Part shown: positions 16,097-43,953 of the stretch, in pieces
Position numbering within the stretch: position 1 is the stretch's first letter
Layout of the letters: each line of letters begins with the position of its first letter
NCBI RefSeq assembly: GCF_002251755.1
Contig: NZ_NOXT01000108.1
Span: forward strand, 1 to 64,000
Direction of reading: 5' to 3'
DNA from: Sandarakinorhabdus cyanobacteriorum
Lineage (GTDB): Bacteria; Pseudomonadota; Alphaproteobacteria; Sphingomonadales; Sphingomonadaceae
DNA length: 64,000 bases
Made by a program: the position numbers and the translations under genes
The notes under the pieces: model-generated
What the model was told of the DNA's origin: nothing
Seen by the model: only the letters and a program-made list of their open reading frames with translations
Database searches by the model: none

Positions 16097-17082
16097 CCAG
16101 CCCCACCGCCCGACGCCGCTCGGTCATCACCGGCACCGGCAGCTATCTGCCGCAAACCATTCTCACCAACGATGATCTCGCCGCCCGGCTCGACACGTCG
16201 GATGAATGGATCATCGAACGCACCGGCATCCGCCGCCGCCATATCGCCGCCGAAGGCGAATTCACCTCCGATCTTGGCGCCGAAGCCGCCCGCCGCGCCT
16301 TGGCGGCTGCCGGCTGCACCCCCGATGACATCGATCTGATCGTCGTCGCCACCGCCACGCCCGATCAAACCTTTCCGGCCGTGGCCACCGTGATCCAGCA
16401 CAAGCTGGGGATGACGCACGGGGTCGCCTTCGATGTCGCCGCTGTCTGCTCCGGCTTTCTCTATGCCCTCACCGTGGCCGACGCCCTGCTCACCACCGGC
16501 GCACACAATCGGGCGCTGGTGATTGGCGCCGAAACCTTCTCCCGCCTGCTCGATTGGGAAGACCGCACCACCGCCGTGCTGTTTGGCGATGGGGCTGGCG
16601 CCATCGTGCTTGAAGCCCAGGCCCAGGCGGGCACCACCGATGATCGCGGCGTGCTGGCCAGCCGTCTGCACAGCGATGGCCGCTACAATGATCTCCTCTA
16701 TGTCGATGGCGGCCCCGGCTCCACCGGCAGCACCGGCCATCTGCGCATGAAGGGCAAGGAAGTCTTCCGCCATGCTGTCACCAACCTGTCCAGCGTGATG
16801 GGCGAGGTGCTGGATGCGGCCGGCCTTGCCCCCGCCGATGTCGCCTGGGTGGTGCCACACCAGGCCAATCTGCGCATATTGGAGGCCACTGCAAAGAAGC
16901 TCGGCCTTGATCCAGGCCAGGTGGTGGTCACGGTCGATTCCCACGCCAACACCTCCGCCGCCTCGGTGCCGCTGGCGCTCGACACGGCGGTGCGCGATGG
17001 CCGCATCCAGCCTGGCGACCTGCTCCTGCTCGAAGCGATGGGCGGCGGTTTCACCTGGGGCGCTGCCGCCGTTCGGTGGTGA
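16093..17082 (+). CDS. fabH: 3-oxoacyl-ACP synthase III
   Basis: A 329-residue KAS III that condenses acetyl-CoA with malonyl-ACP to start fatty-acid synthesis. The Cys-His-Asn triad is visible: Cys in [13 protein letters not shown], His in [11 protein letters not shown] and Asn in [12 protein letters not shown]. The C-terminal [22 protein letters not shown] is typical. It is coupled to plsX by an ATGA overlap. The stop lies within a duplicated GTGAAACTTT motif (about 17080-17099) in the gap before ihfA. Confidence 0.95.
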
Positions 17083-17194
17083 AACTTTCGTGAAACTTTT
17101 CAGTGGCGAATCGCCCAAAGCTGCGTAGAATCAGCGCAGCCAGCCAAGACCATAATCCACACAGGCTGGCGCGCGCAGGGTGGGGGGAGAACAG

Positions 17195-17500
17195 ATGGCA
17201 AGCAAGGCAAGCGCCGGCAGTGTCACCAGGGCCGATCTGGCAGACGCCGTGCATCGCGAAATCGGTCTCTCGCGCACCGAATCGGCCCAACTGGTCGAAG
17301 CCGTGCTTGATCGCATCTGCGATGCGCTGATCGCCGGCTCCAACGTCAAGATTTCCAGTTTCGGCAGCTTCGTCCTGCGCAACAAGGGCCTGCGCGTCGG
17401 CCGCAACCCGAAAACCGGCGTCGAAGTGCCGATCGAACCGCGCACCGTGCTCACCTTCCGGCCCAGCCAGCTGCTGCGCGAAGCCATCAACCGCGGTTGA
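17195..17500 (+). CDS. ihfA: Integration host factor subunit alpha
   Basis: A 101-residue HU/IHF-fold DNA-bending protein. [24 protein letters not shown] is the start of the beta arm, and [20 protein letters not shown] is the C-terminal IHF-alpha signature. ATG 17195 is preceded by GGGGGAGA, a strong Shine-Dalgarno, so a frame open from 17180 is ignored. The gap after fabH (17083-17194) probably carries its own promoter. The merR gene starts within or just after its stop. Confidence 0.93.
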
Positions 17501-17502
17501 TC

Positions 17503-17862
17503 GTGGCGGAATCCGTCTCTGGGAAGGCCGAAGGCGCATTCCGCACAATTTCCGAAGCCGCTGATGAAATCAGCGTGCCCGCGCATGTGCTGCGCTTCTG
17601 GGAAACCCGCTTTTCCCAATTGCAACCGCTGAAGCGCGCCGGCGGCCGCCGCTATTACCGCCCGGCCGACATGGCGCTGCTGCGCCGGATCAAGGCGCTG
17701 CTGCAGGATCAGGGCATGACCATCCGCGGCGCGCAGCTGGCGTTGGGGGCCAAGCCCGCCCCGCCGCCAGCCGCCGAAACCGTGGCCCCGGCCGGGCCCG
17801 GCATTGACCGCTCTGCCCTGCTCGCCATCCGCAACCGGCTGGCCGCCGCACTGCTGGCCTGA
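17503..17862 (+). CDS. MerR-family transcriptional regulator
   Basis: About 119 residues with an N-terminal MerR winged helix-turn-helix: [32 protein letters not shown], then [32 protein letters not shown]. An Ala/Pro-rich tail follows and there is no metal-binding Cys cluster, so the effector is unlikely to be a metal. It follows ihfA, as in many alphaproteobacteria. I prefer GTG 17503; TTG 17497 would overlap the ihfA stop (TTGA). Its target is unknown. Confidence 0.85.
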
Positions 17863-17868
17863 CCGGCC

Positions 17869-18582
17869 ATGAAGGTCGTCGCCCTGTTCAGCGCGAAGGG
17901 CGGCGTCGGCAAATCCTCGCTGGCAGCCAGCCTTGCTCATGGCGCTGCCACCCGCAGCGGCCGCCGCACCCTGCTCTGGGATCTGGACCCACAGGGCGCT
18001 TCCGGCTGGTTGCTGGGTGTTGAGCCCAAGGCCGGCGCCAAGGCGCGCAAGGGCCTCGCCGCCGCCAGCCTCGCCGATCTCATCCAGCCATCGGCCTTTG
18101 CCAATCTTGATGTGCTGGCGGCTGACCGGTCGCTGCGCCGGCTGGAGGCTGACCTTGCCGGCGAAGACAGCGAAAAGCGCCTGAAAAAGGCCCTGAAGCC
18201 GCTGGAAGACCGTTATGACCGGGTCATCCTCGATTGCCCGCCCGGCCTCACCGAACTGGCCGATCAGATGTTCCGCGCCGCCGATCTCATCGTCGTGCCG
18301 GCCATCCCCTCGCCCTTGTCCGGCCGGGCGCTGGATCAATTGACGGGGCATCTTTCCGCCGAAATGAAAACACCGCCACCGCTGCTGCCGGTGTTTTCCA
18401 TGGCCGATCGCCGCAAGGCGCTGCACAAGGCCGCACTGGCCGCCCACCCGGACTGGCTGGTGATCCCCTATGCCAGCGCGGTCGAAGCCATGGCGGCCAC
18501 GCGCCAGCCGGTCGCCAGCGGGCCGGCCGCAACCGCCATCAACGCGCTATGGGCAGCGGTGGAGCGGCAGCTTTCGGCCTGA
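17869..18582 (+). CDS. Orphan ParA-family ATPase
   Basis: A 237-residue deviant-Walker ATPase. KGGVGKSSLAASLAHG is the Walker A region near residues 11-26, LLWDLDPQGASGWLLGV the switch I/A' region, and VILDCPPGL the Walker B. No parB or centromere-like repeats follow, so this is an orphan ParA-like protein rather than a segregation module. It starts seven bases after merR and probably belongs to the same transcript. It ends 19 bases from the convergent malonyl-CoA reductase gene. The cargo is unknown. Confidence 0.85.
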   Translation: MKVVALFSAKGGVGKSSLAASLAHGAATRSGRRTLLWDLDPQGASGWLLGVEPKAGAKARKGLAAASLADLIQPSAFANLDVLAADRSLRRLEADLAGEDSEKRLKKALKPLEDRYDRVILDCPPGLTELADQMFRAADLIVVPAIPSPLSGRALDQLTGHLSAEMKTPPPLLPVFSMADRRKALHKAALAAHPDWLVIPYASAVEAMAATRQPVASGPAATAINALWAAVERQLSA

Positions 18583-18601
18583 TCGCCCCACCGGCTGCGC
18601 A

Positions 18602-21600
18602 TCACACCGTCAGGCTCATCCCGCGATAGATGCGGCTGCGATAACGGCTGTCTTCCGCATCGGGCAGCGGCGCACCGGCCAGCAGCACGGCGCGGGCAAA
18701 GCGGCGCACCTCTTCCTGATGCTCGGCCTCGCTGCGCGGCTCTTCCGAGCGCACGCGGCGGGTCAGGTTGATCTGGTTCACCGCCACCTCGTGCACCAGC
18801 CGCTCATTCTCCACCGCGATGGTCGCGGTAAAGGCGTGCAGCGTCGTCTTGACGAAATTGGCCAGCGCAAAGGCCCCCTTGGCGCCTTCGCCCATCGGCA
18901 CATCCGGCGACACCAGCACCAGCTGGCAATGATCGAACAGCGACACCTTGCGGGCGATGCGGAAATGGTGGGTCAGGTTGTGCTCCACCACCTCGGCAAA
19001 GCCGGCACCGTCCAGCGGCTCGTCACCATCGAACAGCCGGTCCGGCAACGGCGCCAGCGGTGTTGAAACGATGGTGGTCGGATGGCCCCACTTGGCCAGC
19101 GCCTGGTCCATGGCGGTTTCGATATCGCCATCAATCACCAGCGTTTCGACCCGGTCGGCACCCTGGCCCACATGGCCGCGGATCGCCGCGCCAGCCGCCG
19201 CCGTGCCAGTGATCAGCACCACGCGCGCCACATCGGTGTCCAGGAAGCCCTGGGCCGCCGCGCCGAGATAATCGGCGAGATGCTCACCCACCAGCCACAC
19301 GGTCTTGCCGCCCATCTGGGCCAGCCGCTCCGCCTTGGGGCTGCCGAACAATTCGCGTTCGGTATGGCTGCGCTCCACGTTGAGGCCGCCCGAAGGCATG
19401 AAGGTTTCGCCCGACACGGCGCGATCCGCCAGGAAGAACACCGTCGCCTGCGCCACTTCGGTCTCGGTCGGCATCTTGCCCAGGTGCAGCTGGCTCAGCA
19501 CGCCGCCCCGCACCTTGGCCGCCTCGCGGCCGATCTGGGCCACCGGCAGCCACGGCACATCATCAGGCGGCACGCGCAGCAGCCAGTCATGCTCGTCGCG
19601 GGTCTGCCAATCGGTGCCGATCAGCCAACCACCCAGCCGCAACCGGCGCAGTAGCTTGGCCGCCAGCGGCGGGGTCAGGATGAACCGGTCCCAGCAACAG
19701 CGCTCATCGCCTTCGCGGGCACAGGCCAGCGCCAGGTCGCGCAGCGCCTGCGGGTTGGAGCGGTCGTGGCTCAGCTGCACGCTGTCGTTGCGCGCCAGCT
19801 TCGAGAGCAGCTGCGCCACCGGCGCCCCGCCGCGCACCGCCTTGATCACGGCGGCGTGCACGGCGTTCAGCCGCTTGTTCTCCAGGATCAGGCGGCCGCG
19901 CCGATCAAACAGGCCCGGCTTGCCGCCCAGGCCGGCCAGGCGGTCGCCGTCCACCGGGCCGGGCGCGATGGCGTTGATCTGGATCTGCGGGCCGAGATGC
20001 CGGGCCATGGATTCGACCATGGCGCGCTGGCCCGATTTCGACACCGCATAATCAGTGCGGTTCGGGTACGACACGGCGAGGAACTTCTCCCCACCGAAAT
20101 AGCTGGAAACATTGAGGATATAGCCGCTGCCCTGTTTGCGCATCAGCGGCACTACCATCTGCATCAGGGCATAGTTGGAGATGAGGTTGGCAAACTGGGT
20201 GTGGCGGAACGCGCTCACCTCCATGTCCACCGCCATCTCCTCGGCGCCCGAAATGCCGGCATTGTTGATCAGATAATCGATGCGGCCAAAGGCCTTCAGC
20301 GTTTCGTCCACGGCGCGGCGCAGGGAGGCCATGTCGGCCACGTCCACACCCGCCAGCGTGCGCACCCGGCGCTCGACGCCGGCAAAGCCGATGTCCTGCA
20401 ATTCGCCAACGATGCGCTCGCGCGCGGCGTCCAGCTCGCTCTCGCGGCGGGCGACCATCATCACCTTGGCGCCGGCCAGTGCCAGCAGCCGCGCCAGCGC
20501 GCCGCCAATGCCGGCCGAACCGCCGGTGATCAGCGCCACCTTGCCCAGATGCAGGCCCGTGATGTTTTCCGCCGTGCCCACCAGCGCACGGCGCGCACCG
20601 GTCGCCTTGGCGATGCTCTTGGGCAGATAGAGGTTGATCGGATCCACCTGCCGGTCGGTCAGCAGCAGGCGCGCGGCCTGGCCAGCGGCGAAGTCGCGGT
20701 TTTCCACCTCGCCATTGCCATAGCGCACGATCTGGTTGCCCCAGATCACCCGCGGCGTCTTGCCCTGCGCATGCGCCACCCGGGCCTCGTCGCGCCACAC
20801 GCGGAGCAGCTCCTCGATGGCGGCGCGCTCCACATCGGCCCACAGATTGCCGGCGCCATCATCGCCGTTGGTGATGAACACCACGCGCGGATCGGCGGCC
20901 AGATCGGTGCTGCGCTGCCAGTAACGGTCAAGCGTGCGGGCCAGCGCGATCGCGCCTTCCAGCTCGTCATCCACAAAGCGTTCGACATCGGCATCCGTCG
21001 CCTCGCCCAGCGCACCGGTGAAATAACCGGGGCCGCGGGTGGGCAGGATCACCGCGCCATCGATGGCACCGCCGGCCGAGAATTCCGCCAGCGCTTCATC
21101 CATGGCAACATGGTCATGGCGCGGGAAGCGCACCGCCGTCACGCCAGCCGGTAGCCGGTCCTGCGCATCGTCCAGCGCCGATTGGGCGTGATAGCCCAGC
21201 AGCACGCGCGCGCCCTGCGCAGCAAACAGGCCGGCAATGGCCAGGCCATCGTCCAACTGGTTGCCGGCGGCGACCAGAATGGATCGGCCATCGCCATCAA
21301 TGGCGCGCATGTCGGGCCGGTGCAGGAATTCGCTGCGCGATTCCTGCGGCACCGCCATGCCGTGCGTCACTTCAAAATCATGCGCGGCAAAGGCAGCGCT
21401 TTCATCGCTGCCCATGAACACGCAGGCATTGGCGATATCAGCCGGCGTCGGGAAGGTCTTGGCGCGGGCCTCGCCCTCAACGCTGCGCTCCAGCGCCATC
21501 AGATCAAAGAAATGATTGGCCGTGCTGCCCGGCGCGTCGCCCTTCAGGCCGTCCATCGCGGCAAACACGGTGCGGATGCGTTCGGATGCAATCGGGCCGG

Positions 21601-22242
21601 GATAAAGCGTGTTCACCCGGATACCACGCCCACCCAGTTCGCGCGCCAACCGCTTTGACAGGATGTTCAGCGCCGCCTTGGGCACCGTGTAGGCGGCGCG
21701 GCCGAAATAATCGGTGCGGCTGAAGATGGTGGAAACATTGATGATGCTGCCGCCCTCGCCCATCGCAGGGGCAGCGGCGCGCACCAGGTTCCACGCCACC
21801 ACCATGATGTTGCGGGCGGCATCGCCCACCGTCTCATTGTCGGGCGTGCCTTCCAGTTCGTCGGCCGACAGCGGCAGCGCGCCCAGCACCTGCTTGGGGC
21901 CGGCCGAACCGGCATTGTTGACCAATATGTCGATGCGGCCGTGGCGGGCCACGACCTCGGCAATGCCGGCGCGCACCGATTCGATGTTGGCGCCGTCCAT
22001 CGTCACGATGCTGGCCGATCCGCCGGCATCGGCCACGGCGGCTTCCATCGCGGCGGTGGTGCGGGCGGCATCCCGGCCGCTCATCACCACGGTTGCGCCT
22101 TCGGCCAGATAACGGCGCACGATGCTGCCGCCCAGATTGCCGGCCGCCCCGGTGATCAGCGCCACCTTGCCGGCCAGCCGGCCAGGGCGATCTCCCTGCG
22201 GAGCAGGTACGGGCTCACCGCCCTTGGTCTTCGACATCGCGT

Positions 22243-22246
<4 letters not shown>
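18602..22246 (-). CDS. mcr: Bifunctional malonyl-CoA reductase
   Basis: A 1214-residue, NADPH-dependent cytoplasmic enzyme. By family knowledge it reduces malonyl-CoA to malonate semialdehyde (C-terminal half) and then to 3-hydroxypropionate (N-terminal half). Length matches Chloroflexus MCR (about 1220 aa). The N-half SDR has TGAAGNLGGS at 33-42, NNAGSAG at 110-116 and catalytic Ser172, Tyr186 and Lys190 (YTVPK). The C-half SDR has TGGSAGIGG at 574-582, NNAGISG, Ser714/715 and YAVSK (Tyr733, Lys737). Each half also carries a degenerate SDR-like segment (about 316-560 and 1000-1214). The family landmarks LHLGKVALITGGSAGIG and LTHHFRIARK are present. ATG 22246 overlaps the propionyl-CoA synthase stop (ATGA). 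M4 at 22237 is an alternative start. Confidence 0.93.
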
Positions 22247-27747
<5,501 letters not shown>

Positions 27748-27911
27748 GGCTCTGCCCTTTTGCTGGCCGCGGGAATCGGCAGAGGCCGTCCAGCGGACAG
27801 GAAAATTGAATGAGGGCAGGCCTTAGGGAAAGATTATGTCCCCGCCAAGGAATATTGGGTTCTATTATTGCCGGTGCGACATTCTGCCCTGCCGCACGGC
27901 AATGCCCGGCC
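27748..27911 (-). promoter_or_regulatory. Upstream region of the pcs-mcr operon
   Basis: A 164-bp gap upstream of pcs, also downstream of the sugar-phosphate transferase gene, and AT-richer than its flanks between about 27800 and 27880. On the minus strand it contains a CATAAT box (27833-27838) that could be a -10. No clear -35 or operator is visible, and no regulator gene is adjacent. The pcs-mcr promoter should be here. Confidence 0.45.
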
Positions 27912-29375
27912 TCAAAGGGCGTTCTTGGGCAGCAACACGGCCCCAACCGTGCGGATCAGGATATAGAAATCCAGCAGGATCGACCAGTTGTCGATATAGT
28001 AAAGGTCATGCTCGAAGCGCTTGATCAGCTTCTCTTCGGTGTCGGTCTCGCCGCGCCAGCCGCACACCTGGGCCCAGCCGGTGATGCCCGGCTTCACCTT
28101 GTGCCGCGCGGCATAGCTTTGCACCACATCGGAAAACAGCCGGCCGCCCGCGCGGGTTGATGGCGCATGCGGGCGCGGGCCGACCAGGCTCATGTCCCCC
28201 AGCAGCACGTTGAACAGCTGCGGCAGCTCATCCAGGCTGGTGCGGCGCAGGATACGGCCCACCCGCGTCACCCGCGGATCATCGCGAGTGGCCTGGTTGA
28301 TATTCTTGAATTCCAGCTGGTTGTGATACATCGACCGGAACTTGAAACAATCGAAGGTGCGATTGTTGAAGCCCTCGCGCGGCTGGCGGAACAGGATCGG
28401 CCCGGGCGAATCCAGTTTGATGGCGATCGCCACCGCCAGCAGCACCGGCCAGATGAAGGCCAGGATGATCAGCGTCAGCAGCTTGTCCTCGATATTCTTG
28501 GCCACCGCCGAAAGCCCGCCAATCGGCCGGTCAAACAGGGTCATCACCGGCACATCGCCCAGGATCACCACCGGCCGCCGGGCATAGGTGAAGGCGACCA
28601 GATCGGGCCCGAGCCGCACCTTCACCGGTGTCAGCGCCAGCCGGGTGACAATTTCCTGCAAGCGCCGCTCGGCCGCCCAAGGCAGCGCCACCACCACCTG
28701 ATCCACCAGCCCGTCGCGGATCATCTCGATCAGGGTCGTCAGATTGCCCAGCACCGGCACGCCGGCAACATCGGCCGGCCGCCGTTCGGGCGAACGATCA
28801 TCAAACATGCCGATCAGCGTGATGGTCAGCCGCTCATCCGATTGCACATATTGGGCAAAGCGCAGCCCCTGCTGGCCAGTGCCAAAGATCGCCACCCGTT
28901 CGTTGAACGTGCCGCGGGTTTTCAGCCGGCGCACACAGATGATGTCGATGGCACGCACCGAACAGAGCGACACCGCGCCCAGGGCCAGCCAGCTGACCGC
29001 CCAGCCCCGCGACACCTGATCCGATTCCTTCAAGAGATAGCCCAGGGTGATCAGGAACACCGCCGTCAGCAGCCAGGCCATCACCACCCGGTTCCAGCCC
29101 TTGCGCACCGAAAACTGCGCATCAATGTCGTAGGCGCCCAGGCTTTCGGCCAACAACGCATAGGCCGCCGCGCCCAGCAGCACCACGCGGCTGTGGGTGT
29201 CGAGCGTGCCGCCGAAATCCCACACGCCAATGGCAATCAGGACCAGGCCGCTGCTCGCCGCCGCCAGAAATTCGACAACGCGTCCCAGCGTGATGGCGAT
29301 GCGGAGCGGCACGCCCTTGCGGCTGGCGCCGGGTTCAGTGGCCATTGGCGGCAAAATGGGTCGTTCTGAATTCAT
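27912..29375 (-). CDS. Polyprenyl-phosphate sugar phosphotransferase (EPS initiation)
   Basis: A 487-residue polyisoprenyl-phosphate hexose-1-phosphate transferase of the WcaJ/GumD type. It loads the first sugar onto undecaprenyl phosphate at the inner membrane. Four N-terminal helices (about 25-150) are followed by a nucleotide-binding-like domain ([18 protein letters not shown]) and a membrane re-entrant helix near 310-330. The catalytic domain contains [55 protein letters not shown] and [20 protein letters not shown]. It is part of the exosortase/EPS locus, divergent from the small XrtV accessory gene. The first sugar (probably glucose) is inferred. Confidence 0.92.
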
Positions 29376-29489
29376 TCAGCACTGGAACTTTGCTAAGAAA
29401 AATTTACTGGTTGGCGCGACTGCCGTTTGAATCAGCATGGTCACATCTGGCCGTGTTGGTATAGAGGCAAGTGCGAGGGAGATGATTGG
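29376..29489. promoter_or_regulatory. Divergent promoter region, EPS transferase / XrtV accessory
   Basis: A 114-bp divergent gap containing a short AT-rich run (GCTAAGAAAAATTTACTGG) and a TATAGA box at about 29460 toward the forward gene. It must hold start signals for both genes. No operator is recognisable. Confidence 0.4.
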
Positions 29490-29747
29490 ATGGAAACACC
29501 ATATGATTGGGTGACGGTGATGGCGTTTGCCGTCTTAATCGTCCTGTTCCTGCAACGCAGTCAGGGCGAACCGCGCGACCATCTCTGGCAGTATCTGGTC
29601 GCGTCTGTCGGCTGCGCGGTGACCAACTATCTCGGCAACGAAGCGATGAAGAGCGGGGAAATCACCCTGCATGGCGGGGCGCTGCTGCTGTTCGCTGGCA
29701 CGCTGGGCTTCATCTGGCGCGTGCTCAAACCCTTCGATCACGGCTGA
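29490..29747 (+). CDS. XrtV sorting system accessory protein
   Basis: An 85-residue membrane protein with two to three hydrophobic segments (about 8-21, 34-48 and 60-76). It resembles the small accessory protein found beside exosortase V in sphingomonads. I start at ATG 29490, preceded by GAGGGAG; upstream in-frame starts add an unlikely polar N-terminus. It lies on the opposite strand from the rest of this arm, divergent from the glycosylphosphotransferase and convergent with epsI. The role in sorting is unknown, and the family assignment is from recall of the neighbourhood and sequence. Confidence 0.7.
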   Translation: METPYDWVTVMAFAVLIVLFLQRSQGEPRDHLWQYLVASVGCAVTNYLGNEAMKSGEITLHGGALLLFAGTLGFIWRVLKPFDHG

Positions 29748-29770
29748 GCCGCTGCAAGGGCGGGCGGCCA

Positions 29771-30478
29771 TCACGCGCCACCCGCCGTTCGCGCCAACGT
29801 CCGGCCGATCAGGGCCGGCAGGGCCCGTGGCGCAATTGCCTGCAACATCGTCTGGGAAAACACCCGCATCGTCGCCAACACCTGCGGTGACGGTTCGGCC
29901 GCCACGCTCAACCGCACCAGAATGCCGTCGGCGATATAGCCGTCCCACTGCTGGCGCAGCTTCACCAGCCGCTGTTCGGTGCCGCTGGTCGGCAGATCAT
30001 CGCCAATGCGGGTCCAGTACGTGATGGTTTCCACCCGCGATTCGTTGCGCGCCACCAGATCACGCACCGGCAGGCGCAGCCGGGGCCCGACATCCAGCAC
30101 CGATGTGCGCACATTCTCGATCGAAAAGCCCGCCGCCGAATAACAGACCTCGGGCCGGTGCAACTGCAGCGAATCGCTCTGGATCGGGCCATAGGCCATG
30201 ACCAGGATGATCGGCAGATTGCCCGGTGCCTCATACAGGCGGGCGAGCTGGTCGCCATAAAGCTTGTCCGCCAGCGAGCCTTCGCGCGGCTTTGGCAGCA
30301 CGATGCTGGACGTGGGCACGACTTCCCACTCGCCCAGCCGTTCCGGCACGATGTCGTTCAGCGTCGTGCCATCCGGCATCAGCACCAGCCGGTCACGCGG
30401 CGTCAACGCCACGGCACCGGCAGCCCCGGCCGCCAGCGCACCGCCCACCAGAAAATCCCGGCGCGATGGCCCGCTCAT
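29771..30478 (-). CDS. epsI: Exosortase-associated protein EpsI (V-type)
   Basis: A 235-residue exported protein with a Tat-type leader (SRRDFLVGGALAAGAAGAVAL). It carries the EpsI landmark LHRPEVCYSAAGFSI with its conserved Cys (about residue 116). EpsI proteins always accompany exosortases and are thought to act in polymer or protein processing in the periplasm; the biochemical role is unknown. I start at ATG 30478, which overlaps the exosortase stop by four bases (ATGA), as in many exosortase-EpsI pairs. Confidence 0.85.
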   Translation of the reverse strand: MSGPSRRDFLVGGALAAGAAGAVALTPRDRLVLMPDGTTLNDIVPERLGEWEVVPTSSIVLPKPREGSLADKLYGDQLARLYEAPGNLPIILVMAYGPIQSDSLQLHRPEVCYSAAGFSIENVRTSVLDVGPRLRLPVRDLVARNESRVETITYWTRIGDDLPTSGTEQRLVKLRQQWDGYIADGILVRLSVAAEPSPQVLATMRVFSQTMLQAIAPRALPALIGRTLARTAGGA

Positions 30479-31392
30479 GCCACGACACCCTTCGATTCCA
30501 GCCGATTGCGCAGCGGCGTCAGCACCCAATCCAGCGCAAAGATCAGCAACAGGGCCGAGACAAAGGTCACCATGCCGGCAAAATTGTGCAGATAACCCTG
30601 CGCCCAGGCATTGCCGAGATAATAGGTGATCAGCACCAGGGCCGCGACGCGCACGCCGTTGGCCAGAATGGCAATCGGGATCACCATCGCAAGCAGCAGC
30701 ATCGAATAGGCCGGGTTCGAACCCCGCAGCAGATAGACATAGAACAGGCCAATGGCTGAAAGACTGACCAGCGAATTCAGGCCGGCGCAGGCATCTTCCA
30801 CCAGCAACTGATAGGCGCCGACATAGATGGTCACACCCAGCCGGGCGATCGGATAATCCATCGCGGCCAGCGAATCGGTGACGATCTGCGACACGAATTC
30901 TTTCAGCGGCAAGGTGATCTGGTCCAGGAACCAGCCGGGCAGCGGAATGACAAAGCCCAGATAGAAAATCGGGAACCACAGCATGCGCAGCACTGCCATG
31001 CCCCAATATTGCTGGATCACCGCCACCATCGCGAGCAGCAGTGCCGCCGCCTCGATGCTGATGAACTCAAACGCCCGGCCGCCAATGTAAACCACCATGG
31101 CAACCGCGAGCAGAAGCGCGGTGAGCACCGGATTGCCCGGCCGCTGCAGCCGCACGATATCGTTCCAGCGCCGCATCACCAGCCAGATGCCGGTCACCAG
31201 CACGATCACACCGTGTACGCCGGATTCCTCCTGCCAGGGGCCACGCGCCAGGCTGACAATCGTCGGCAGGGCCAGCACCGCCAGCCCGGCAGCCAATGGC
31301 CACTGGTTGCGCACGAAGGCGCGGACATCGGGTCCAGCCGCTGTCCTGCCTGTCGCTGCGCCAACCGCCTGCGATGCGGCTTCAGAAGTCAT
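30475..31392 (-). CDS. xrtV: Exosortase V (XrtV)
   Basis: A 305-residue inner-membrane cysteine transpeptidase-like enzyme with about eight helices. The exosortase triad is visible: Cys202 in VEDACAGLNSL, Arg248 in ANGVRVAAL and His269 in GYLHNFAG. By family knowledge it cleaves C-terminal sorting tails and passes the protein to a surface glycan. Type V is chosen because a V-type EpsI and the small accessory gene adjoin it; a different exosortase class is possible. Its start overlaps the upstream ATPase gene by 11 bases. No substrate with a sorting tail is found in the window. Confidence 0.88.
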   Translation of the reverse strand: MTSEAASQAVGAATGRTAAGPDVRAFVRNQWPLAAGLAVLALPTIVSLARGPWQEESGVHGVIVLVTGIWLVMRRWNDIVRLQRPGNPVLTALLLAVAMVVYIGGRAFEFISIEAAALLLAMVAVIQQYWGMAVLRMLWFPIFYLGFVIPLPGWFLDQITLPLKEFVSQIVTDSLAAMDYPIARLGVTIYVGAYQLLVEDACAGLNSLVSLSAIGLFYVYLLRGSNPAYSMLLLAMVIPIAILANGVRVAALVLITYYLGNAWAQGYLHNFAGMVTFVSALLLIFALDWVLTPLRNRLESKGVVA

Positions 31393-32302
31393 TCAGCACG
31401 GCTCCCACCACCGCGCAGCGCGCCGCGGCAAGTTGATCCGCCAATACGCTGACATCCTTGTAATAGGTCTGGTTGGTGCGGCCGACCACCAGGGCATAGG
31501 CCGCCGCGCCGGCGATGTTCAGCGCATCGGCGCTGGTGTTGGCCGCCGGCGTGTCAAACAGCACCAGATCATATTCGCGCAGCAGCGTGTTGACACCGTC
31601 GCGGAACCGGTTGCCCGAAAGAAGTTCCTGCGGGCGGCTGGTCGGCGGGCCGGCGGTGATCACGGCCAGACCGGGCAGAACATTGGCATTCACCACGCGT
31701 TCCGGGCGGGCCACCTGCAGGGCCAGGAAGCTGGACAGCCCCGGCGCATTGGGATCAAGCCCGAAGATCTGATCCTGGCGCGGGCTGCGCATGTCGGCAT
31801 CAACCAGCAGGATCTTGTACCCCACCTGCGCCAGCGCAACAGCCAGATTGGCCGCGACATAGGAACAGCCATGGCCATCGGCCGTGGCCACCACCGCGAG
31901 GCCGCGACGGCCATTCTTGATGTGCTGGGCAATCACCTGCGTGCGCAGCATGCGGATGGCTTCGGCCCGCACCGATCCGGGATCGGAAATGACGATCAGC
32001 TCGTCCGACGTCGGACGACGCACGACATTCTGCAACGCCATGGCGTTGATCAGCTGTTCGCGGGCGCGGTCCAGCTCTTCCGATGTGATATAGCCGATTT
32101 CCAGCGCCGCCTGGTCAAAGTCCAGACCACGCTCGGCGGCATGCTGCGCCACATGCGCCGCCTGATCCTGCGACAGATAGCCAAGCCGGGTCAGCACATC
32201 GCGGATCGGCGCATCATAACGTTCGCCGCCGGCGACCCGAACCCGCTCGACAACATTGGCCTCAACGTCCTCGAACGGGACTTCCTGTTCGTTGTTATCC
32301 AT
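31382..32302 (-). CDS. EPS-associated P-loop ATPase, BY-kinase-like with degenerate Walker A
   Basis: A 306-residue cytoplasmic protein related to the EpsG/CpsD bacterial tyrosine-kinase partners of Wzz proteins. An N-terminal domain (about 30-95) resembles the MshEN/GspE N-domain (IRDVLTRLGYLSQDQ, then ALEIGYITSEELDRA). The ATPase part has ADGHGCSYVAANLAVALAQ at 141-159 where Walker A should be. The usual GEGKT/S Lys is replaced by Cys146. Walker A' (LLVDADMRSPRQ, 165-176) and Walker B (VLFDTPA) remain. The protein ends in AVLNDF with no C-terminal tyrosine cluster, so autokinase activity is doubtful. It lies between wzz and xrtV. Confidence 0.8.
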   Translation of the reverse strand: MDNNEQEVPFEDVEANVVERVRVAGGERYDAPIRDVLTRLGYLSQDQAAHVAQHAAERGLDFDQAALEIGYITSEELDRAREQLINAMALQNVVRRPTSDELIVISDPGSVRAEAIRMLRTQVIAQHIKNGRRGLAVVATADGHGCSYVAANLAVALAQVGYKILLVDADMRSPRQDQIFGLDPNAPGLSSFLALQVARPERVVNANVLPGLAVITAGPPTSRPQELLSGNRFRDGVNTLLREYDLVLFDTPAANTSADALNIAGAAAYALVVGRTNQTYYKDVSVLADQLAAARCAVVGAVLNDF

Positions 32303-32346
32303 TCACCTGTCCTTGCGCAGCCACTGCCCGTTGCCCCGTCCGGGTA

Positions 32347-33741
32347 TCATTGGGCCGGCTGAAACTGTTCGTTCCGCCCGTTGCGACGAATCAGCAACCG
32401 CTTGATCAGGCGTTGCCATTCCGGAGTCTGCTGATCGGCAACCACGGCGAACACCGGCACCCGGGCGGCAAAGCCCAGATCCTCGGCGCCGCGCACGCGG
32501 CGATTCAACAACTCGACCAGCAGGGCCATCAGCACGCCCACCGAAAGGCCGATGCCGGCCGCCAGCGGAATGATCAATGACCAGTTCGGGAAGGTCGGGT
32601 CGGGGCTGACGATGGCGTCACCCAGCACGATCAGGCCTGCATCCGCCACATTCGATTCGAGCTGCAGTTCGCTGGTGCGCTTGGCGGCCTGCTCATATTG
32701 CTGGCGCCGCAGCTCAACCTCGCTGGTCAACTGGCCCAGTTTGTCCAGCTTTTCCTTCATGGCGAACACCTTGGCGCGCTGCGCCTCATATTCGGCCTCA
32801 AGCTGGGCCACACCGCCGCGCGACGCGCCCAATTGGGCCGCGCCGGCCTGGCGTGCAGCCACCTGTTCGCGGGCCAGTTGGCGTTCCAGCTGGGTCCGGC
32901 GCGACAGCATGGCCAGATAGGTCGGGTGCTGGTTGCCCAGCCGTTCCGATGCCTGCTCGATCTGGTCATTCAATGTCGCAAGCTGCACCTTCAGCTGATC
33001 AACCACCGAACTGTTGGTCGATTGGCGCACCGCCTCGAAACTCTGCATTCCGGCATTGGATCGGGCCTCGGTAAGGGCAGCCTGCAAGCTGGCCAGCTTT
33101 AACGTCTCGGCCTCGCCGGTGCCGGTCATCACGATGCCGTTATCCTGCTCGAACTTGGTCTTGGCCGCTTCGGCACTCTGCAGCACGCGCAAGGCACGGG
33201 CCGCCTGCTCGCGATACCATTCGGCGGTGCGGCCGGCCGAATCCGTCCGGAACTTCAGACTGTTCTCGATATAGGCATCGCGCAGCGCGTTCACCGTGCG
33301 GCGGGCCACTTCGGGCACCCCGGCCTCATAGGTGATCTCCATGATGTTGGAGCTTTCGATCTGCGACACCTGCACGTTGTTGACGATCCGGTCCGCCAGC
33401 CAGCGCCGGAAATCGCCATAGCCGCCGGTTTCGGCCTGCCAGGTGGCCAGCAGGTTGGCGTTGCTGGTCAGGCCCAGACGGTCGACCGCCTCGCCGGCGA
33501 TGCGGTAATCCTTGATCAGTTCGAGCTGGGTGCGGATGAACATCTTGATGCCCGAGGCGTTCAGCACGGCGCCGGTCACCGGGTCGGGCTTGAAATTGTC
33601 CATCAACACACGGGCGCGCGCCGGATAACGGGCGGGCAGCAGATTGCCGATGGCCACGCCGACCAGCAGGCCCAGGAACACGGCAAAGGCGATCAGCCAG
33701 CGCCGCGCCACCAGGATTCGCACCAACTGGATCAAACTCAT
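32347..33741 (-). CDS. Wzz/GumC-type polysaccharide co-polymerase
   Basis: A 464-residue inner-membrane chain-length determinant. A first helix sits at about 13-33 (RRWLIAFAVFLGLLVGVAIG). A long periplasmic coiled-coil region follows (about 170-370; SAEAAKTKFEQD, QLKVQLATLNDQIEQASERL). The second helix is near 405-430 (PNWSLIIPLAAGIGLSVGVLMALLVELLNRRVRGAEDLG). It controls EPS length and export together with the Wza-type protein. Unlike Gram-positive or fused forms it has no kinase domain; the separate ATPase downstream fills that place, though its Walker A is degenerate. Confidence 0.88.
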   Translation of the reverse strand: MSLIQLVRILVARRWLIAFAVFLGLLVGVAIGNLLPARYPARARVLMDNFKPDPVTGAVLNASGIKMFIRTQLELIKDYRIAGEAVDRLGLTSNANLLATWQAETGGYGDFRRWLADRIVNNVQVSQIESSNIMEITYEAGVPEVARRTVNALRDAYIENSLKFRTDSAGRTAEWYREQAARALRVLQSAEAAKTKFEQDNGIVMTGTGEAETLKLASLQAALTEARSNAGMQSFEAVRQSTNSSVVDQLKVQLATLNDQIEQASERLGNQHPTYLAMLSRRTQLERQLAREQVAARQAGAAQLGASRGGVAQLEAEYEAQRAKVFAMKEKLDKLGQLTSEVELRRQQYEQAAKRTSELQLESNVADAGLIVLGDAIVSPDPTFPNWSLIIPLAAGIGLSVGVLMALLVELLNRRVRGAEDLGFAARVPVFAVVADQQTPEWQRLIKRLLIRRNGRNEQFQPAQ

Positions 33742-33810
33742 AAACGTCTCCCCGGCCAGGCCGGCTCCCTCAAATTCCGCATCCCGCCGGCACCGCCGGC
33801 GGGCACCCGA

Positions 33811-34584
33811 TCAGAACAGGCGTTCCTTGATGACGATTACATCACCATTCTGCACCTTCTGTGACGGATCGGCGTCAATTTCCTTGCCGCTGCCGCGCAC
33901 CAGGCCCACCTTGTCGGCCTTGCCCGATGCCGTCACCCCGCCCGCCAGCGCGATCGCCTGCCGGATGGTCATGCCCGGCAGGATATTCTTCATGCCCGGC
34001 GCGTTGATCTGGCCATAGATGAAGAATGTCTCGGCCGGAGGGACAAACAACGTATCTCCCGGCGCAAGGGCCGGTTCCGTGCTGGCACCCGACGTGCGCA
34101 CCAGTTGCTCGATCTCCAGCCGCTGCTCCGGCTGACCGGCACGACGCAGATACACGAAATTGGCGCCATCTGCCCGCACCCAGCCCGCCTTCAGCAAGAT
34201 TTCCAGCACATGATACGGACGATCGAGCGGAAAGATGCCCGGCGACGTCACATTGCCGGCCACATTCACGGTGCGCGACACGTAAGCGCCGATTTCGACG
34301 TTCACCAGGGGCTGCTTCAGAAATCCGCCTGCCACCAGCTTGTCTGTGATCAGGCGGGCCAGGGTGATGTTGGTTTCGCCCTGGGCCTTCACCGTGCCGA
34401 TCAGCGGCATGACGATGGTGCCATCCGCCTTGACCCGCGTGGTGACATTGAATTCAGACTGGCCGTAGACCACCACCTGCACGCTGTCGTCAGGTCCAAG
34501 CTGATAACCGGCATAGGCCTGTTGGGCAGACACCGGGCCCGCCAGCACAGCGGCGACCACGGCAAAGGGAAGCATCTTGATCAT
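33811..34584 (-). CDS. Wza-type polysaccharide export protein
   Basis: A 257-residue exported protein. The signal peptide is cleaved after VLAGPVSAQ, with no lipobox. The poly_export domain is GYQLGPDDSVQVVVYGQSEFNVTTRVKADGTIVMPLIG. Two SLBB-like beta-grasp segments follow (TVNVAGNVTSPGIFPLDRPYHVLEILLKAGWV and FFIYGQINAPGMKNILPGMTIRQAIALAGGVT). It is shorter than E. coli Wza and lacks the outer-membrane helix, so the adjacent beta-barrel gene probably provides the outer-membrane part. It is coupled to that gene (TAATG overlap). Confidence 0.9.
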   Translation of the reverse strand: MIKMLPFAVVAAVLAGPVSAQQAYAGYQLGPDDSVQVVVYGQSEFNVTTRVKADGTIVMPLIGTVKAQGETNITLARLITDKLVAGGFLKQPLVNVEIGAYVSRTVNVAGNVTSPGIFPLDRPYHVLEILLKAGWVRADGANFVYLRRAGQPEQRLEIEQLVRTSGASTEPALAPGDTLFVPPAETFFIYGQINAPGMKNILPGMTIRQAIALAGGVTASGKADKVGLVRGSGKEIDADPSQKVQNGDVIVIKERLF

Positions 34585-42679: not shown

Positions 42680-42741
42680 CCTGACCCGCCCGGTTCCAAT
42701 GGAGCCGCGGCACGAACCTGTTGACCAACGGTGGCAAGGCC

Positions 42742-43953
42742 ATGGCTGCGGACTTTCTGGCAAAGGTAAAACAGGCGGACAGCTGCACCGGCTGCGGTCT
42801 GTGTGCTGCCGTGTCGCCGGGCATCCGCATGGCCAGCGCCGGCCCAGGTTGGGCCCGGCCGGAACAGATCGGTGCAGTCACATCGGCCGAAGATGCCGCC
42901 ATCGCCGCCGCCTGCCCCGGCCTGGTGGTCGACGAGACGGACAATCCGCATGATCCGGCCGAGCCGCTGTGGGGGCCGCAGCGCTTCACCGGCGTGGGCC
43001 ATGCCACCGATGCGGCGATGCGCTACCGCGCCTCGTCGGGTGGCATGATCTCGGCCCTGCTCGCCCATGCACTGGCCAGCGGCCTTGTCGATTTTGTCGT
43101 GCAGGTGCGCGCCGATCCCGCCCGGCCCACCGGCAACATCACCAGCATCTCCACCAGCGTTGACGATATCATGGCCGCTGCGGGCTCCCGCTATGCCCAA
43201 AGTTCGCCGCTGGCTGGCTTGAACGACTGGCTGGCCCGGCCCGGTCGCTTCGCCTTTGTCGGCAAACCCTGCGACGTGGCTGCCCTGCGCGCCCGGGTCA
43301 GGTCCGATCCGGCGCTGGCGGCGCGCGTGCCGCTGATGCTGGCCTTCTTCTGTGCCGGCATCCCGTCTGACCGGGCGGTGGGCCGCATCCTCGATCATCT
43401 TTCTGTTAGGCCCGATGATGTCACCGGTTTCCGCTTTCGCGGCGATGGTTGGCCCGGCTATGCCACCGCCACGCTGGCCGATGGCAGCACGCGGCGGATG
43501 ACCTACAACGACAGCTGGGGTCAGATACTGTCAAAGGAAATCCAGTTCCGCTGCAAGATCTGCGCCGATGCCGTGGGCGCGGCCGCCGATGTTGCCTGCG
43601 CCGACGCCTGGTATGGCGATGATCGCGGCTACCCAAGTTTCGAGGAAACCGATGGTCGCAGCCTGGTGATGGCCCGCACGCCGGCCGGCCTTGCCGTGCT
43701 GGATGCCGCCCGCGCCGCCGGCGCCGTTGCCACCGAAGCGGTGCCGGTGGATCACATCATCCGCATGCAGCCGCACCAGGCCCGACGCAAGCGCCAGGTG
43801 CTGTCGCGCCTGTGGGCGATGCGCGTCGCCGGCCGGCCGGTGCCACGCTATCTGGGCCTGGCTGTCACCGAAGCCGCCCGGCGCGAGCCGCTGCTGCAGC
43901 AATTGAAAAGCTTTGCCGGCCTCCTGCGCCGGTTCATCAAGGGAACGGCATGA
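42742..43953 (+). CDS. FrhB/coenzyme F420 hydrogenase beta-subunit family protein
   Basis: About 403 residues. A ferredoxin-like cysteine set CTGCGLC near residue 18 precedes the FrhB N- and C-terminal domains: [64 protein letters not shown]. The family binds Fe-S and flavin, and members occur in EPS clusters beside pyruvyl transferases in bacteria without F420. There it may be a redox or sugar-modifying enzyme of unknown substrate. ATG 42742 is chosen over TTG 42721. It overlaps rmlA by four bases (ATGA). Confidence 0.8.

What the first reader, a model, noticed from the sequence alone, without database searches (positions are those of the whole stretch)
18602..27747. Complete malonyl-CoA reductase and propionyl-CoA synthase pair in a sphingomonad
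Two intact giant genes, coupled by an ATGA overlap, encode a 1214-aa bifunctional MCR and an 1834-aa trifunctional PCS with all visible catalytic motifs. These are the diagnostic enzymes of the 3-hydroxypropionate bicycle of Chloroflexus, and homologues are known in Erythrobacter-type Sphingomonadales. Inference: with acetyl-CoA carboxylase, propionyl-CoA carboxylase and methylmalonyl-CoA mutase elsewhere, the organism can turn acetyl-CoA and two bicarbonates into succinyl-CoA. That would be a CO2-fixing anaplerotic route replacing or supplementing the glyoxylate shunt, or one for using 3-hydroxypropionate.
Basis: partly seen in the sequence, partly recalled or inferred. Interest (0 to 1): 0.9.

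Follow-up and report, generated by a model that had tools for sequence, protein, structure and literature searches.

The report
CO2-adding carbon route in phototrophic sphingomonad
Two very large neighbouring genes in a light-harvesting bacterium encode known enzymes that, together with others in its genome, should add carbon dioxide to acetate-derived carbon; in the genomes of its order that were examined, this gene pair was found only in species that also carry light-harvesting reaction centres, which suggests a link to life in the light.

Summary
Observation confirmed. Window 18602-22246(-) encodes a 1214-aa bifunctional malonyl-CoA reductase (MCR) and 22243-27747(-) an 1834-aa propionyl-CoA synthase (PCS), overlapping by ATGA. 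All 14 MCR residues named for the Roseiflexus enzyme are present. The genome (genus of Sandarakinorhabdus sp. AAP62) also encodes AccA, AccD, a PccA/PccB-like pair and methylmalonyl-CoA mutase, so acetyl-CoA + 2 HCO3- -> succinyl-CoA is plausible (epimerase untested). "Replacing the glyoxylate shunt" fails: isocitrate lyase and malate synthase A are present.

Of 396 Sphingomonadales genomes 34 have MCR, all among the 79 with reaction-centre genes; PCS adjoins MCR in all 34. On a reaction-centre tree the pair changed state 11 times (at least 9 by well-supported branches); one genus holds it from two sources; in a genome of another alphaproteobacterial family it lies one gene from pufM. In 21 of 35 loci accA directly follows mcr. 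Against a strict need, 45 of the 79 lack MCR.

Enzymes and CO2 co-assimilation idea are published for close relatives (Erythrobacter NAP1, Porphyrobacter): a new member of a known kind, with a quantified restriction to phototrophs as the added value.

The parts
22243..27747 (-). pcs: propionyl-CoA synthase, 1834 aa (ligase + hydratase + reductase)
18602..22246 (-). mcr: bifunctional malonyl-CoA reductase, 1214 aa
22243..22246 (-). ATGA overlap of pcs stop and mcr start
   Evidence: ORF ends and starts; same -4 gap in 8 of 35 loci
25192..27747 (-). PCS acyl-CoA ligase part (about residues 1-852); K817 kept in 35 of 35
   Evidence: boundary approximate
24208..25110 (-). PCS enoyl-CoA hydratase part (about residues 880-1180); E987 and E1007 kept in 35 of 35
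   Evidence: boundary approximate
22273..23973 (-). PCS enoyl-CoA reductase part (about residues 1259-1825), related to crotonyl-CoA carboxylase/reductase
   Evidence: boundary approximate
20615..22246 (-). MCR N-terminal half (malonate semialdehyde reductase side; T173, Y180, R183, Y186, K190)
   Evidence: boundary approximate
18602..20614 (-). MCR C-terminal half (malonyl-CoA reducing side; S715, Y727, R730, Y733, K737, R769, L779, R783, R1149)
   Evidence: boundary approximate
27748..27911 (-). Intergenic region upstream of pcs (presumed promoter); no sigma-70-like or TGTN12ACA site found

Best explanation
The two genes form an operon for the reductive part of the 3-hydroxypropionate route. 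Acetyl-CoA carboxylase makes malonyl-CoA; MCR reduces it with 2 NADPH via malonate semialdehyde to 3-hydroxypropionate; PCS activates (ATP), dehydrates and reduces (NADPH) this to propionyl-CoA; propionyl-CoA carboxylase and methylmalonyl-CoA mutase then give succinyl-CoA. Net: acetyl-CoA + 2 HCO3- -> succinyl-CoA without carbon loss, for about 3 NADPH and 3 ATP-consuming steps (stoichiometry recalled). Shown here: enzyme families, active-site residues, gene order, flanking enzymes (Pcc by inference, epimerase not searched), a separate glyoxylate shunt, no RuBisCO large-subunit match, puf/bch genes. Inferred: that it runs in this direction in the cell, and that it pays when the photosynthetic apparatus supplies ATP and spares reductant, so that this phototroph co-assimilates CO2 with acetate-yielding substrates in the light, alongside the glyoxylate shunt.
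For: Full-length matches to solved MCR and PCS and 14 of 14 named MCR residues. pcs precedes mcr in 35 of 35 loci. accA directly after mcr in 21 of 35 (two checked as AccA), which ties the pair to malonyl-CoA formation. AccA, AccD, Mcm, Pcc-like pair in the genome. Of 396 genomes of the order, 34 MCR+, all within the 79 reaction-centre genomes (overlap also seen in the script); PCS in the same 34 of 80 searched; Fisher p 1.5e-27, within-genus product 9.4e-8. RuBisCO in 0 of 34 and Ccr over cut-off in 0 of 35. Purifying selection. Published: 3-HP genes up by day in a Porphyrobacter and CO2 co-assimilation proposed (PMC10674011, passages).
Against: No activity, flux or expression was measured. 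45 of the 79 reaction-centre genomes lack the pair. The glyoxylate shunt is present, so there is no obvious need for a second acetate route. accA is not linked in this genus. No shared PpsR-type site upstream of pcs (1 of 35, none in this genus). Propionyl-CoA carboxylase is assigned by domain and neighbourhood, not by a passed cut-off; epimerase, AccB and AccC were not searched.
Confidence: 0.75

Rival explanations
1. The operon mainly assimilates external 3-hydroxypropionate (for example from algal DMSP or acrylate breakdown): PCS makes propionyl-CoA from 3-HP and MCR is accessory.
For: PCS alone would suffice to turn 3-HP into propionyl-CoA (family knowledge), and PccA/B-like proteins and Mcm are present.
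Against: PCS never occurred without MCR in the 80 genomes searched for it, and accA follows mcr in 21 of 35 loci, which points to malonyl-CoA as the entry. No 3-HP transporter or DMSP gene was looked for. The confinement to phototrophs is not explained.
Confidence: 0.1
2. The restriction to phototrophs is mere shared ancestry or hitch-hiking with photosynthesis genes, not function.
For: In G517 the pair sits one gene from pufM; MCR and PufLM distances correlate (r 0.43, none of 2000 permutations as high).
Against: In other genomes the two lie far apart or on different contigs (nearest seen on one contig about 75-130 kb: G202, G280, G065, G206). The MCR label needs 11 changes on the PufLM tree, at least 9 forced by well-supported branches. 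Genus g3 holds the pair from two sources (AU p 1.6e-7, group named after the tree was seen). MCR follows PCS (r 0.96) far more than puf. Limits: the PufLM tree is not a species tree.
Confidence: 0.15
3. A complete autotrophic 3-hydroxypropionate bicycle as in Chloroflexus.
For: First part of the first loop is present; two CitE/RipC-like proteins of the lyase superfamily (L045, L047) remain unassigned.
Against: No lyase passes a named cut-off; mesaconyl-CoA enzymes and malate-CoA transferase were not searched. A review states that no true aerobic anoxygenic phototroph grows autotrophically (PMC12654162, passages); a Porphyrobacter with the same key enzymes is said to lack a full pathway (PMC10674011).
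Confidence: 0.05
4. A supply line of propionyl-CoA or methylmalonyl-CoA for lipids (the pair lies near fabH and plsX in the window), or an NADPH sink under excess reductant without net anaplerosis.
For: Neighbouring fabH and plsX in the window; the route consumes 3 NADPH.
Against: fabH/plsX cluster members were seen in 4 of 35 loci only, all of this genus; Mcm is present to take propionyl-CoA onward. The redox-sink version is compatible with the main reading.
Confidence: 0.1

Closest known systems
Propionyl-CoA synthase of Erythrobacter sp. NAP1 (PDB 6EQO; organism recalled and per PMC11599936)
   Same: Same fused ligase-hydratase-reductase architecture, aligned over residues 21-1825.
   Different: Ordinary sequence divergence; different genus.
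Malonyl-CoA reductase of Porphyrobacter dokdonensis (6K8S, 6K8V) and Roseiflexus castenholzii (8HI4)
   Same: Both halves, all 14 named active-site residues.
   Different: Ordinary sequence divergence.
Partial 3-HP route in Porphyrobacter sp. ULC335 and Erythrobacter NAP1 (PMC10674011, passages)
   Same: Aerobic anoxygenic phototrophs of the same order; key 3-HP enzymes, proposed CO2 co-assimilation, 3-HP genes up by day.
   Different: No expression data for this genus here.
Autotrophic 3-hydroxypropionate bicycle of Chloroflexus aurantiacus
   Same: Acetyl-CoA carboxylase, MCR, PCS, Pcc-like pair, Mcm.
   Different: Second loop not shown; purple-type reaction centre; pcs and mcr adjacent here, apart in Chloroflexus (Caur_0613 and Caur_2614 in PMC3150298, passages).

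Membership tests
Bifunctional (Chloroflexus-type) malonyl-CoA reductase | About 1200-aa protein of two SDR-based halves, full-length match to solved members | tested here: met
[quoted passage not shown]
   14 of 14 residues of PMC10470521
Bifunctional (Chloroflexus-type) malonyl-CoA reductase | NADPH-dependent malonyl-CoA reduction to 3-HP | not testable with these tools
   needs an enzyme assay
Propionyl-CoA synthase | Fused ligase, hydratase and reductase with full-length match to a solved member | tested here: met
   K431, K817, E987, E1007 kept in 35 of 35 (positions chosen from recalled motifs)
Propionyl-CoA synthase | 3-HP + CoA + ATP + NADPH -> propionyl-CoA | not testable with these tools
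   needs an enzyme assay
Anaplerotic (partial) 3-HP route | Acetyl-CoA carboxylase, propionyl-CoA carboxylase and methylmalonyl-CoA mutase in the same genome | tested here: inconclusive
   AccA, AccD, Mcm over cut-off; Pcc inferred from domains and neighbourhood; epimerase, AccB, AccC not searched
Complete autotrophic 3-HP bicycle | Malyl-CoA/citramalyl-CoA lyase | tested here: inconclusive
   three HpcH-family proteins, none over a named cut-off
Complete autotrophic 3-HP bicycle | Mesaconyl-CoA hydratase and transferases, malate-CoA transferase | not tested
Replacement of the glyoxylate shunt | No isocitrate lyase / malate synthase | tested here: not met
   both present over cut-off
Aerobic anoxygenic phototroph (host) | Type II reaction centre and bacteriochlorophyll genes without RuBisCO | tested here: met
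   PufL, PufM, BchY, BchZ over cut-off; no PF00016 match. Aerobic life style not testable here

The most novel reading that the evidence does not exclude
pcs-mcr(-accA) is a light-tied carboxylation module of aerobic anoxygenic phototrophs. Phototrophic lineages have gained it repeatedly, in one case within one gene of the puf operon, and none of the genomes examined keeps it without a reaction centre. It turns photosynthetic ATP and spared reductant into CO2-derived carbon alongside, not instead of, the glyoxylate shunt.
Probability: 0.5. Interest if true: 0.7.

Novelty: new member of a known kind. Interest (0 to 1): 0.45.

Why it matters
[quoted passage not shown] which reactions turn light into carbon is not settled. 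The comparison here offers a clear, testable candidate: an operon found only in reaction-centre genomes of its order (34 of 34), gained or lost many times, often with accA attached. If right, part of their CO2 uptake is a dedicated two-carboxylation route, which bears on growth yield and CO2 uptake estimates. The gene pair itself only adds one more genus to a known enzyme set.

Tried and rejected
PpsR/CrtJ control: TGTN12ACA within 400 nt upstream of pcs in 1 of 35 loci, none in this genus; not supported as a shared mechanism.

Plasmid carriage: no MCR match in 72,556 plasmid records at E 1e-80.

RuBisCO or ethylmalonyl-CoA pathway as hidden alternatives: RuBisCO large subunit in 0 of 34 MCR+ genomes of the order, in 3 of 45 reaction-centre genomes without MCR, and a weak match in G517; Ccr over cut-off in 0 of 35 (the search scores pieces, the best was 157 bits against 378.55).

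Sigma-70-like promoters in 17000-29500: none found, 1.5 expected by shuffling; uninformative. The one genome-contig scan used six short peptides of this protein and so could find close relatives only.

PCS was searched in 80 of the 396 genomes only, so PCS without MCR in non-phototrophs is not excluded. ICL in the 34 MCR+ genomes was read by eye and verified in one. Five look-ups of papers by id were not held. What I say about print rests on ten paper searches in an open-licence library that lacks most subscription journals; papers were seen as listings or passages, plus one discussion section. I do not claim that the phototroph restriction is unpublished.

Full report
WHAT IS THERE. The window holds two intact genes on the minus strand: pcs at 22243-27747 (1834 aa) and, downstream, mcr at 18602-22246 (1214 aa), overlapping by ATGA. 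Pfam finds the ligase, hydratase and reductase domains of PCS and two short-chain-dehydrogenase stretches in MCR. MCR matches 8hi4 from residue 23 to the end and, in two halves, 6k8v and 6k8s; PCS matches 6eqo over residues 21-1825. PMC10470521 (passages; discussion section) names residues needed for catalysis or substrate binding in Roseiflexus MCR. The 14 that I checked are present, as T173, Y180, R183, Y186, K190, S715, Y727, R730, Y733, K737, R769, L779, R783 and R1149, and in 35 of 35 loci. Four PCS residues chosen from recalled family motifs (K431, K817, E987, E1007) are also kept in 35 of 35. dN/dS against four congeners is 0.15-0.27 for mcr and 0.12-0.19 for pcs: purifying selection.

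THE HOST. The nearest named MCR genes are from Sandarakinorhabdus (S. rubra 92%, strain AAP62 88%) and three metagenome-assembled genomes at 94-96%. G244, coded 'same genus' as the window's genome, has a contig of the same length (304,969) as AAP62's, which places the window in that genus. The genome has 3.53 Mb and is 99.95% complete; the window is on contig 97. It encodes methylmalonyl-CoA mutase (NF006944, 1204 bits, cut-off 876) and AccA and AccD over cut-off. In L057 a carboxyltransferase (PF01039, 670 bits; TIGR01117 782 bits, below its cut-off of 999) lies about 1.2 kb from a biotin carboxylase with a C-terminal biotinyl motif (NF006367, 602 bits, cut-off 597); I read these as PccB and PccA, by inference. 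In L059 isocitrate lyase (NF005074, 1067, cut-off 446), a RamB-like regulator (339, below its cut-off of 700) and malate synthase A (TIGR01344, 746, cut-off 594) lie together, so the glyoxylate shunt is encoded and 'replacing' does not hold. Three HpcH-family proteins match CitE, RipC or aldolase models, all below cut-off; whether one is a malyl-CoA lyase is open. Epimerase, AccB/AccC and mesaconyl-CoA enzymes were not searched. PufL, PufM, BchY and BchZ are over cut-off in L061 and RuBisCO large subunit is absent: the host is an anoxygenic phototroph.

DISTRIBUTION. In an even draw of 396 genomes of the order, MCR (E <= 1e-100) occurs in 34 and the reaction-centre family PF00124 in 79. All 34 lie within the 79 (lists compared by eye; the script also finds every one of them among the reaction-centre loci). 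None of the 317 other genomes has MCR at that threshold; Fisher p 1.5e-27. PCS was searched in 80 genomes, the 79 plus G338, a congener with neither trait; it was found in the same 34, each time beside MCR. To lessen the effect of kinship I took the four genera in which MCR varies among listed genomes (6, 45, 41 and 32 genomes, counted by eye; 49 of 396 genomes are not listed there). The chance that all their MCR+ genomes fall on reaction-centre genomes is 9.4e-8. A draw of 289 genomes of the class, which shares at least four genomes with the first (G000, G005, G012, G019), has MCR (E <= 1e-80) in 2, G000 and G517, and reaction centres in 20, both included; its one new case is G517. All 34 MCR+ genomes have a Pfam ICL match (by eye; verified only here). 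RuBisCO occurs in 0 of the 34 against 3 of the 45 reaction-centre genomes without MCR; Ccr over cut-off in 0 of 35. Against a need for the pair: 45 of the 79 phototrophs lack MCR.

GENE ORDER. I fetched 18.5-20 kb around the pair in the 34 genomes and G517. pcs precedes mcr in 35 of 35, with gaps of about -4 to 163 nt (20 loci, 15; starts chosen by rule). Directly after mcr (about -1 to 31 nt) 21 of 35 carry accA; two were checked and pass the accA cut-offs. One more has accA 2 kb on. In the window's genus accA is elsewhere. The next most shared neighbours occur in 13 of 35, mainly within one genus. The link to the enzyme that makes malonyl-CoA argues for the acetyl-CoA to succinyl-CoA direction. 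In G517 the order is pcs, mcr, a DUF3422 gene, then pufM, pufL and bchZ on the other strand. In the others the pair is not beside puf: the nearest seen on one contig are about 75-130 kb apart (coordinates).

HISTORY. On a PufL+PufM tree of 79 rows (78 of the 79 order genomes, the fragmentary G002 dropped, plus G517) MCR presence needs 11 changes. In a careful tree of 77 rows (long rows G173 and G029 dropped) it again needs 11, at least 9 forced by well-supported branches. This is a reaction-centre tree, not a species tree. MCR and PCS tree distances agree (r 0.96); MCR and PufLM less (r 0.43), with 0 of 2000 permutations as high in either case. In the joint PCS+MCR tree the 18 genomes of genus g3 fall in two places: 15 together, and G204, G283 and G206 with G517 (100/99). 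Holding g3 together is rejected (AU p 1.6e-7; group named after the first tree was seen). So phototrophs of one genus hold the pair from two sources.

MECHANISM. Best reading: acetyl-CoA carboxylase, MCR, PCS, propionyl-CoA carboxylase and methylmalonyl-CoA mutase turn acetyl-CoA and two bicarbonates into succinyl-CoA, paid in NADPH and ATP, which is most affordable in the light. Alongside a glyoxylate shunt this fits a role in yield or redox balance in the light rather than in making growth on acetate possible. The steps follow from family membership and conserved residues; flux, direction and light dependence are inferred. Published support: in a Porphyrobacter, 3-HP genes are higher by day and CO2 co-assimilation is proposed (PMC10674011, passages). 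Bloom metagenomes show an incomplete 3-HP signal in aerobic phototrophs, without propionyl-CoA carboxylase (PMC11089705, passages). A glacial-lake study reports an association of anoxygenic photosynthesis with non-Calvin fixation including the 3-HP cycle, and names a Sandarakinorhabdus MAG as potentially mixotrophic (PMC10239486, passages). PpsR-type sites upstream of pcs: 1 of 35, so a shared photosynthesis regulator is not supported.

NOVELTY. The enzymes, solved structures and the co-assimilation idea are known in close relatives: a new member of a known kind. Ten paper searches listed no paper that I saw state these, but the library is partial.

Noticed in passing
window 27912-34584 (-): Exopolysaccharide/exosortase genes directly upstream of pcs: sugar transferase (PF02397) at 27912-29375 and exosortase EpsH (PF09721) at 30475-31392. 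The sugar transferase is shared upstream in 4 of 35 loci, all of this genus.
   Followed up: partly
L097:10259-19524 (G517): mcr is followed by a DUF3422 gene and then pufM, pufL and bchZ on the opposite strand.
   Followed up: partly
L068-L073, L075-L088, L092 downstream of mcr: accA sits directly after mcr in 21 of 35 loci; whether it is a second copy in those genomes is unknown.
   Followed up: partly
L059:140-5483: Isocitrate lyase, RamB-like regulator and malate synthase A gene cluster in the window's genome.
   Followed up: yes
genomes G013, G294, G310: Three reaction-centre Sphingomonadales without MCR carry a strong RuBisCO large-subunit match (E under 1e-130).
   Followed up: no
genome G352: Four PF00124 matches, i.e. 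apparently two pufLM sets on two contigs.
   Followed up: no
window 42721-43953 (+): FrhB/FdhB-type (coenzyme F420 hydrogenase beta subunit) protein beside glycosyltransferase genes.
   Followed up: no
upstream of pcs in 13 genus g3 loci: An element like GTAATTTTGCTGCAT is shared by many of the 13 loci aligned, of unknown meaning; not seen in this genus.
   Followed up: no
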